Virus record (IMG/VR): IMGVR_UViG_3300036835_000183
Coordinates: 1 to 20,698 of that record
Length of the DNA: 20,698 nucleotides
Reading direction: 5' to 3' (one strand)
Source of the DNA: a virus
The notes beneath the pieces were generated by a model. It did no database searches. It had not been told where the DNA came from and saw only the letters and a program-made list of their open reading frames with translations. This document shows, in pieces, positions 16,456 to 18,018 of the stretch. The position numbers were made by a program, and so were the translations under genes. Positions within the stretch are counted from its first letter, which is position 1; every line of letters begins with the position of its first letter.

Positions 16456-17325
16456 TCATACGGCTCGGAGTTTGCCGTAGTTGGCGGCGCCGTCGACGGC
16501 TGCTCGCATCCGTTCCCATCCGACTTTGGTGTACCGCCGTGTGGTGGCGGGGTCTTGATGGCCCAGCATGTCCTGCACCGCGGCGAGGTCTTTGGTGTGG
16601 TCCAACGCGGCGGTGGCGGCGGTGTGCCGCCACCGGTGCGGGTTGACGTGCTCGTCGACACCGGCGGCGGCGGCGATCTCGTAGACGACGGCACGCATCG
16701 TCGAATCGGACACCGGTCGGCCGGGATGGACGGGCGAGGGGAACACGAACGTCCGGGACCGGCATTCGGGACGCCACCGGCCCAACACGGCGACGGCGGC
16801 GGTCGTCAACGGGACGTCGCGGTGCTTCACGCCCCGACGCCCCGACCCTTTGCCGGCGACCCGCCACGTCGACGCGGACCCGTCGAACACGAACGTGTCC
16901 CACCGTGCCAGGCGGGCTTCGCTGATCCGGCAGCCGGTCGTCCCTAACAGCACGGCGGCGACATGGTGGACGCCGCCGATGCGGGCGGCCGCGGCCCGTA
17001 GCCGGTCGAACGCGGGCCCGGCGACCGGGCGGGGGTGTCCTTCCGGCGCGGGCAGCGAGGGGAGCTCGAGCGCGGGCCCGCCCGTGCGGTGCCCGATGGC
17101 GCGGTAGAACGCGACCAGGGCTTTGCGGGCCCCGTTACGCGACGACGCCGACGGCGGCAGCGTCGTCCACCAGTCGTACAGTTCGTCCGCAGACGCCCCT
17201 AGAAGGCCGCCTAACGCGTGTTCGGCCCGTTGGGCGTACCCGACGTACACCGCGATGGTGGCGGGGGCGTAGTGGCGTTCTGTCAGCCACGCGGCGAAGT
17301 TGCGTCCTGTTCCGGTGAGTCCCAT
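16456..17325 (-). CDS. int: Tyrosine integrase
   Basis: A 289-aa protein on the minus strand, ATG at 17325-17323. The N-terminal core-binding (SAM-like) region spans about residues 1-90; the catalytic domain follows with R133 (TGCRISEA), K159 (RVAGKGS), H230 and R233 (HRWRHTAA), H256 (GHQDP) and nucleophile Y265 (RRYTKV). All five catalytic residues plus the tyrosine are present, so it should be active. It mediates attP-attB recombination and shows the phage is temperate. The length is rather short and lacks a large arm-binding domain. It lies 39 bp downstream of the repressor gene in the same direction, the BPs-type arrangement. Confidence 0.95.
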   Translation of the reverse strand: MGLTGTGRNFAAWLTERHYAPATIAVYVGYAQRAEHALGGLLGASADELYDWWTTLPPSASSRNGARKALVAFYRAIGHRTGGPALELPSLPAPEGHPRPVAGPAFDRLRAAAARIGGVHHVAAVLLGTTGCRISEARLARWDTFVFDGSASTWRVAGKGSGRRGVKHRDVPLTTAAVAVLGRWRPECRSRTFVFPSPVHPGRPVSDSTMRAVVYEIAAAAGVDEHVNPHRWRHTAATAALDHTKDLAAVQDMLGHQDPATTRRYTKVGWERMRAAVDGAANYGKLRAV

Positions 17326-17364
17326 CCCGGTCAGTCGGTCGTGTCCCGTGGCCGGTTTACCGGT

Positions 17365-17440
17365 TCACGCCGCGATCGGTTGGCGTTGCCGACGGGTAAC
17401 CGTGACGCCGGGCTCGCGATTACTGGTTGGTAACAGTGCA
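17365..17440. other. Candidate attP region inside the repressor 3' end
   Basis: On the plus strand, GGTAACCGTG (17395-17404) and GGTAACAGTG (17429-17438) are near-identical direct repeats 34 bp apart, and further inverted elements, ACGG-GTAA-CCGT (17392-17403) and CCGGTTTACCGG (just outside, 17352-17363), surround them. Integrase-binding repeats next to int are expected at attP. No complete tRNA 3' end was recognised, so the host target cannot be named. The core itself is not identified. Confidence 0.5.
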
Positions 17441-17718
17441 AGACGTTCGGCGCGAGCACGTGCTCGGTCGGCCACGACGGAGGACAGGTCGTCGAGGGCG
17501 ACGCCGTAGATGATCGCCAGCTCGACAAGCAGGTCGATGTCCATCAGCTCGGGGTCCGGTCCGTCGCCCTTGTGGTACAGGCGGATCTTCTCGCCGCTCG
17601 GTGCGGACAGCCCGACCGCTTGCACCAGTCGACGTTCGAGAATCTTGAACGACGGGTCACCAGCGGCGTGCCGCAGCTCCTCCAACCGCACCCCTACTTC
17701 CTGCCGCGTCTCCATCAC
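17365..17718 (-). CDS. XRE/HTH-like immunity repressor, C terminus ending -IAA
   Basis: A 117-aa minus-strand protein, GTG 17718 or ATG 17715. Residues about 1-82 look like a phage repressor DNA-binding domain: RLEELRHAAG, KIRLYHKG, and LLVELAIIYGVALDDLSSVV, which matches the end of XRE-type domains. The last about 24 residues (TSNREPGVTVTRRQRQPIAA) look unrelated to that domain. The protein ends in -IAA, the type of ssrA-like degradation signal reported for the viral-form repressor of mycobacteriophage BPs. Divergent operators lie upstream. Integration inside its 3' end would replace the tag. The call of immunity repressor is inferred from position and fold. Confidence 0.78.
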   Translation of the reverse strand: MMETRQEVGVRLEELRHAAGDPSFKILERRLVQAVGLSAPSGEKIRLYHKGDGPDPELMDIDLLVELAIIYGVALDDLSSVVADRARARAERLALLPTSNREPGVTVTRRQRQPIAA

Positions 17719-17731
17719 CCAACACTCTGCC

Positions 17732-17744
17732 AGACATTATGTCT
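17732..17744. promoter_or_regulatory. Operator-like palindrome AGACAT-T-ATGTCT
   Basis: A perfect inverted repeat with 6-bp arms and a one-base centre lies 14 bp upstream of the repressor start and covers its likely -10 box. This location suits autoregulation or action by the opposing HTH protein. Confidence 0.6.
17736..17741 (-). promoter_or_regulatory. Possible leftward repressor promoter -10 (CATAAT)
   Basis: On the minus strand, CATAAT differs by one base from TATAAT and lies 17 nt upstream of the GTG start. The -35 region is weak (no TTGACA-like hexamer at 17 nt), so this is tentative. Confidence 0.4.
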
Positions 17745-17782
17745 CATGTCCATAGGATCAGCACGACGTTTCGATTGTGGCG

Positions 17783-17811
17783 TTGACGACAAGTGACTTG
17801 TTGTCTACGTT
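17783..17811 (+). promoter_or_regulatory. Rightward early promoter (TTGACG -17 bp- TACGTT)
   Basis: -35 TTGACG (17783-17788) and -10 TACGTT (17806-17811) are spaced by exactly 17 bp. The first codon of the downstream gene is at 17821, about 9 bases after the -10, so its mRNA is probably leaderless or nearly so, common in actinobacteria. This should drive the early operon and, via read-through, possibly the late genes. Confidence 0.7.
17785..17805. promoter_or_regulatory. Operator-like inverted repeat in the early promoter spacer
   Basis: Arms GACGACAAGT (17785-17794) and ACTTGTTGTC (17796-17805) are inverted repeats with one mismatch, around one central G. The repeat spans the -35/-10 spacer, so a dimer bound here would block RNA polymerase. 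It is the most likely repressor operator in the window. Confidence 0.7.
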
Positions 17812-17820
17812 GCAAGCGAG

Positions 17821-18018
17821 ATGTCACGGACACCGACGTTCCCCCTCTATGACCGGATGCTCGGCGGCCGTCTCGCCCTGCTACTACTCCGCTGGCGCGA
17901 GGACGGACTGAGCCACCGAGCGATCGCCGGCCGGCTCGCTGCCGACTACGACGTCCACGTCTCATGGAAGACGGTCGGCCGTTGGTTGGCCGACCTCGAA
18001 GGTCCCGGCGCGGCGTGA
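17821..18018 (+). CDS. Small HTH protein, Cro- or excisionase-like
   Basis: A 65-aa protein from ATG 17821, the first gene after the rightward promoter and divergent from the repressor. Residues about 29-58 (GLSHRAIAGRLAADYDVHVSWKTVGRWLADL) form a helix-turn-helix; the small size fits a Cro-like regulator or a recombination directionality factor. It ends in Gly-Ala-Ala, also a potentially unstable C terminus. The methyltransferase GTG overlaps its stop. Cro versus Xis cannot be decided from sequence. Confidence 0.65.
   Translation: MSRTPTFPLYDRMLGGRLALLLLRWREDGLSHRAIAGRLAADYDVHVSWKTVGRWLADLEGPGAA

What the first reader, a model, noticed from the sequence alone, without database searches (positions are those of the whole stretch)
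16456..17820. Probable integration-dependent immunity switch: repressor ends in -IAA and overlaps a candidate attP
In mycobacteriophage BPs and relatives, rep and int point one way, cro the other, attP lies inside the rep 3' end, and the viral-form repressor carries an ssrA-like C-terminal tag that integration removes. Here the gene order and directions are the same, the repressor's last 24 residues look unrelated to its DNA-binding domain and end -IAA, and near-identical GGTAAC(A/C)GTG repeats lie in that 3' end just upstream of int. This would be such a switch in a very different, smaller phage.
Basis: partly seen in the sequence, partly recalled or inferred. Interest (0 to 1): 0.85.

Follow-up and report, generated by a model that had tools for sequence, protein, structure and literature searches.

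The report
Soil phage integration-dependent immunity switch
This uncultured soil phage appears to carry a repressor gene that ends in a self-destruct tag and overlaps the site where the phage inserts into its host, so that insertion itself would make the repressor stable; the same kind of switch is known in cultured mycobacterial and Gordonia phages and seems common in this soil phage group.

Summary
A 117-residue repressor-like gene (17365-17718, -) ends -QPIAA. It is followed on the same strand by a 289-residue tyrosine integrase, and a short HTH-like gene diverges from it. The GGTAAC(A/C)GTG repeats are at 17395 and 17429. The window is an IMG/VR virus record, so no host junction could be read. 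Comparative evidence favours integration-dependent immunity. The one close relative (integrase 73-74% identical) has a repressor only 34% identical, yet it ends -GVAA and its 3' DNA is better conserved than its body (66% against 50%). In related soil phages, 16 of 17 distinct repressors upstream of short tyrosine integrases end -AA and one ends -AS, against 3.3% of background ORFs. Twelve carry one 12-bp block, TCTACCAAATGG, in the repressor tail; the DNA after it differs, but the -AA end stays. Unrelated repressor bodies sit on the same block. Cultured controls behave alike: YungMoney's repressor ends -GIAA; in prophiGD25-1 the true att core falls in the conserved block of the repressor tail. 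Still unproven here: the attP position, the truncated prophage form and proteolysis. Most likely a new member of a known kind, in phages with no close cultured relative.

The parts
17365..17718 (-). repressor gene (viral form), 117 aa, ends ...VTVTRRQRQPIAA
   Evidence: ORF; homologous to L002 rep, which has an HTH_31 match
17368..17376 (-). C-terminal Ile-Ala-Ala, putative ssrA-like degradation tag
   Evidence: sequence; -AA end in 16 of 17 distinct related tails
   Evidence: GTTACCCGT is a 9-bp exact match with L002 rep at the corresponding position; alignments
17419..17434 (-). imperfect palindrome GTTACC-AACC-AGTAAT, alternative attP core or accessory integrase site; overlaps the other repeat
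   Evidence: L002 has GTTACT-CCGC-AGTAAC at the same place
16456..17325 (-). tyrosine integrase, 289 aa, C-terminus KLRAV (no -AA tag)
   Evidence: Pfam, PHROG, alignment with L002
17821..18018 (+). divergent small HTH-like gene (cro-like position), 65 aa
   Evidence: ORF; weak HTH_32 match E 0.002, below cut-off
17733..17743 (.). GACATAATGTC palindrome in the rep-cro gap, candidate operator
   Evidence: exact copy in the same place in L002; resembles the BPs operator CGACATATGTCG (PMC4557955)
17765..17825 (.). long imperfect inverted repeat around ACAAGTGACTTGT, candidate second operator
   Evidence: the repeat finder (30-nt arms, 73% complementary)

Best explanation
This is an integration-dependent immunity switch. 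Before integration, the viral repressor is made with a C-terminal -IAA tag and is destroyed by the host ClpXP-type protease, so lytic growth proceeds. [quoted passage not shown] When the tyrosine integrase recombines it with the host site, the last roughly 7-22 codons, including the tag, are cut off and replaced by host sequence. The stabilised repressor then silences the divergent early promoter through the intergenic operators. Shown: gene order, the -AA end, and the conservation of both the tail and the -AA end. Inferred: attP position, truncation, proteolysis and repression.
For: 1) The L002 repressor shares 34% of residues with the window's, but also ends -AA, and its tail DNA is better conserved than its body (66% against 50%). 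2) In relatives fetched by the lysin or RecT gene or by a DNA block, 17 distinct repressor tails upstream of short tyrosine integrases end -AA (16) or -AS (1); background 27 of 825, or 3.3%. Eight of these tails (L021, L023, L083, L107, L109, L116, L144, L152) were found by the DNA block rather than by the -AA filter; seven end -AA and one -AS. 3) Twelve share TCTACCAAATGG in the tail, and the DNA after it differs while the -AA end persists. 4) Unrelated repressor bodies sit on this same block next to related integrases, e.g. L023 and L116 with integrases 86% identical. 5) L013 and L015 are identical for 3.5 kb from 8 nt above a shared tail block and about 72% alike just above it. 6) Controls: YungMoney and Clown repressors end -GIAA and -KPAA; in prophiGD25-1 the 18-bp repeat at the prophage ends lies inside the block shared with phiT45-1. 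7) The window integrase's best cultured matches include integrases of such phages. 8) Integrases of L005, L008 and L020 also end -AA, as in several described systems (PMC8092301).
Against: No prophage or attL/attR was found for this phage or its relatives. The longest exact match to L002 at corresponding positions of the rep tail is only 9 bp (GTTACCCGT), so the attP position is weak. The two tail palindromes are 34 bp apart here and 37 in L002. The window integrase ends -RAV, not -AA. Some tails were first picked with an -AA filter, and related phages are not independent samples.
Confidence: 0.77

Rival explanations
1. The repressor is kept unstable by its -AA tag, but attP lies elsewhere (for example in the rep-int gap or beyond int), so integration does not alter the protein.
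For: No junction was seen. Exact DNA conservation with L002 in the tail is short.
Against: In L002 the rep-int gap holds a whole extra ORF and shows no comparable conserved block. In the related soil phages the conserved blocks are in the rep tail, and in the control prophage such a block contains the true core.
Confidence: 0.12
2. Ordinary rep-int-cro immunity module; the -AA end and the repeats are coincidence.
For: Ends in -AA occur in 3.3% of long ORFs in these GC-rich phages; the repeat count in the window is only about twice expectation.
Against: 16 of 17 related repressor tails end -AA although the DNA after the shared block differs.
Confidence: 0.06
3. A variant of the best explanation: the tail palindromes are accessory integrase sites or regulatory sites rather than the crossover point, which lies nearby but still inside rep; the switch works the same way.
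For: Two imperfect palindromes with different spacing in the two phages.
Against: The integrase is short (289 aa) and by its length has little room for an extra arm-binding domain (domain inference from length only).
Confidence: 0.25

Closest known systems
Integration-dependent immunity of mycobacteriophage BPs (gp33/gp32; clusters G, I, N, P)
   Same: rep and int on one strand, divergent cro-like gene, C-terminal tag expected to be removed by integration; a similar GACAT palindrome in the intergenic region (PMC4557955)
   Different: No detectable sequence relation of rep to any cultured phage record; the part lost would be shorter (about 7-22 residues, against 33 in BPs); no tRNA T-arm motif (GTTCGA) in the tail by eye; attP and degradation not demonstrated
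Integration-dependent immunity of Mycobacterium abscessus prophages and Gordonia phages (prophiGD25-1, phiT45-1, YungMoney, Clown, Walrus)
   Same: short tyrosine integrase next to rep, att core inside rep in the annotated prophage, -AA or -AS ends in the Gordonia phages, among the best cultured matches of the window integrase
   Different: Integrases about 25-28% identical; YungMoney and Walrus carry a tRNA-like block in the rep tail, the window does not; phiT45-1 lacks an -AA end

Membership tests
BPs-type integration-dependent immunity | rep and tyrosine int adjacent on one strand, cro-like gene divergent | tested here: met
   divergent gene has only weak HTH matches
BPs-type integration-dependent immunity | viral repressor ends in an ssrA-like -AA tag (typical, though not universal, PMC8092301) | tested here: met
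   -QPIAA in the window, -GVAA in L002, 16 of 17 related tails; sequence level only
BPs-type integration-dependent immunity | attP lies inside the repressor gene | tested here: inconclusive
   conserved palindromes in the tail; no attL/attR found; 9-bp exact match only
BPs-type integration-dependent immunity | integration gives a shorter, stable, active repressor | not testable with these tools
BPs-type integration-dependent immunity | viral form is degraded by a host protease | not testable with these tools
   needs a stability assay
BPs-type integration-dependent immunity | integrase also carries a degradation tag (seen in BPs; an -AA end is not found in all described systems, PMC8092301) | tested here: not met
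   window int ends -LRAV and L002 -LRDV, so no -AA end; -AA in L005, L008, L020

The most novel reading that the evidence does not exclude
In this uncultured soil phage group the att core inside the repressor tail also serves as a swap point for immunity. Unrelated repressor bodies are exchanged onto one fixed core and integrase, each ending in its own -AA tag, so that integrase-driven recombination would change immunity specificity while keeping the switch.
Probability: 0.3. Interest if true: 0.65.

Novelty: new member of a known kind. Interest (0 to 1): 0.45.

Why it matters
Integration-dependent immunity was worked out in cultured mycobacteriophages and reported in Gordonia and M. abscessus phages. 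Here it appears to be common in uncultured soil phages with no close cultured relatives, with several different att-like cores and at least two unrelated repressor families on one core. The repeated -AA end after differing DNA is natural evidence that the tag is selected. The swaps at the core suggest how such phages may diversify immunity.

Tried and rejected
Rep search in phage records and viral contigs found nothing. Scanning viral contigs for the window's own core and for the L005/L008 core gave no integrated copy. A search for a tRNA remnant with Rfam was uninformative, because the positive control (YungMoney, which has a tRNA-like block) was also missed. The AlphaFold model of rep was too poor to use (mean pLDDT 51.5). 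An L007 hit that first looked like an att junction turned out to be a rep-int fusion.

Full report
What is there. The window is a 20.7-kb IMG/VR virus record with terminase, portal, capsid, lysin and RecT-like genes. At 16456-17325 (-) lies a 289-residue tyrosine integrase. Upstream of it on the same strand, after 39 bp, is a 117-residue gene ending QPIAA (17365-17718). A 65-residue gene diverges at 17821. The 17719-17820 gap holds GACATAATGTC, present identically at the same place in relative L002. This resembles, but is not the same as, the BPs operator CGACATATGTCG (PMC4557955). A second, longer imperfect inverted repeat lies beside the divergent gene.

Nearest relative. One viral contig, L002, has an integrase 73-74% identical. 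Its repressor is only 34% identical over the alignment but homologous, has an HTH_31 match and ends RYATTGVAA. DNA identity is about 50% in the repressor body and 66% in the tail. The tail holds two imperfect palindromes in both phages: GTTACY-N4-ARTAAY and GTTACCCGTMGGYA. L002 has an extra small ORF between rep and int, so the gap itself is not conserved.

A wider group. The lysin gene brought in 80 loci of related soil phages and the RecT gene a few more. Among their integrases two kinds appear. Long ones (mostly 380-455 residues) in several cases have a tRNA-like motif near their start and have no -AA ORF before them. Short ones (mostly 270-315 residues) have an -AA repressor-like ORF upstream. 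L018, L020, L043 and L069 share TCTACCAAATGG in the repressor tail. A scan of viral contigs with GTCTACCAAATGGTA plus a local scan with mismatches brought this to 12 repressors. Eleven end -AA and one -AS; eight of the twelve were not preselected for -AA, and seven of those end -AA. The bases after the block and the tail lengths vary, so the -AA end is not a by-product of conserved DNA. In all, 16 of 17 distinct tails end -AA, against 27 of 825 background ORFs. The binomial (about 3e-23) overstates the case, since the phages are related and some were preselected.

Swapped bodies. On the TCTACCAAATGG block sit two repressor groups with little or no similarity to each other by BLASTP: L018, L021, L083, L107, L109, L116 and L144 against L020, L023, L043, L069 and L152. 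Integrase relationships cut across them: L023 and L116 integrases are 86% identical, L018 and L069 71%, L144 and L152 69%, yet the bodies differ in group. L013 and L015 are identical for 3.5 kb from 8 nt above a shared tail block, and about 72% alike in the 300 bp above it. This is what exchange at an att core would leave, though ordinary recombination is not excluded.

Controls. In cultured phages with the same anatomy, YungMoney rep ends ELPGIAA, Walrus LPAIAS, Clown LKPAA, while phiT45-1 has no such tag. The -AS end of L107 therefore has a cultured parallel. prophiGD25-1 is annotated with attP inside the repressor; its 18-bp end repeat lies inside the 24-bp block shared with phiT45-1. So the rule 'conserved block in the rep tail marks the att core' works where the answer is known. 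In M. abscessus prophages, integration removes 20-35 residues and many but not all rep and int proteins end -AA (PMC8092301).

Mechanism and limits. The best reading is a BPs-type switch: tagged unstable viral repressor, stable truncated prophage repressor. Shown: anatomy, the -AA end and its conservation. Inferred: attP position, truncation, proteolysis, repression. The window's integrase lacks an -AA end, which is also so in some described systems. The window-specific attP evidence is weaker than that for the TCTACCAAATGG group. An actinobacterial host is inferred from the cultured matches only.

Verdict. A new member of a known kind, in phages with no close cultured relative; the mosaic swapping at the core is the most novel part and is not proven.

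Noticed in passing
L007:753-1193 (-): In-frame fusion of a repressor body with the att-like block GGTTACGGCGGATGAACTACGG to the last 30 or so residues of the integrase, ending -RRYLAA; the rest of int is missing. Either a natural int deletion that keeps a degradation-type end, or a misassembly.
   Followed up: partly
L021:6000-8340 (-): A repressor ending STKWYPRVAA is followed by an unrelated gene and what looks like only the C-terminal remnant of an integrase.
   Followed up: no
window:17964-19013 (+): DNA methyltransferase gene (N6_N4_Mtase) overlapping the end of the cro-like gene.
   Followed up: no
window:14776-15429 (-): HNH endonuclease gene on the opposite strand between tail and lysin genes, possibly a homing endonuclease.
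   Followed up: no
L002:4766-4951 (+): Small ORF (61 aa) overlapping the rep stop and lying between rep and int, absent from the window.
   Followed up: no
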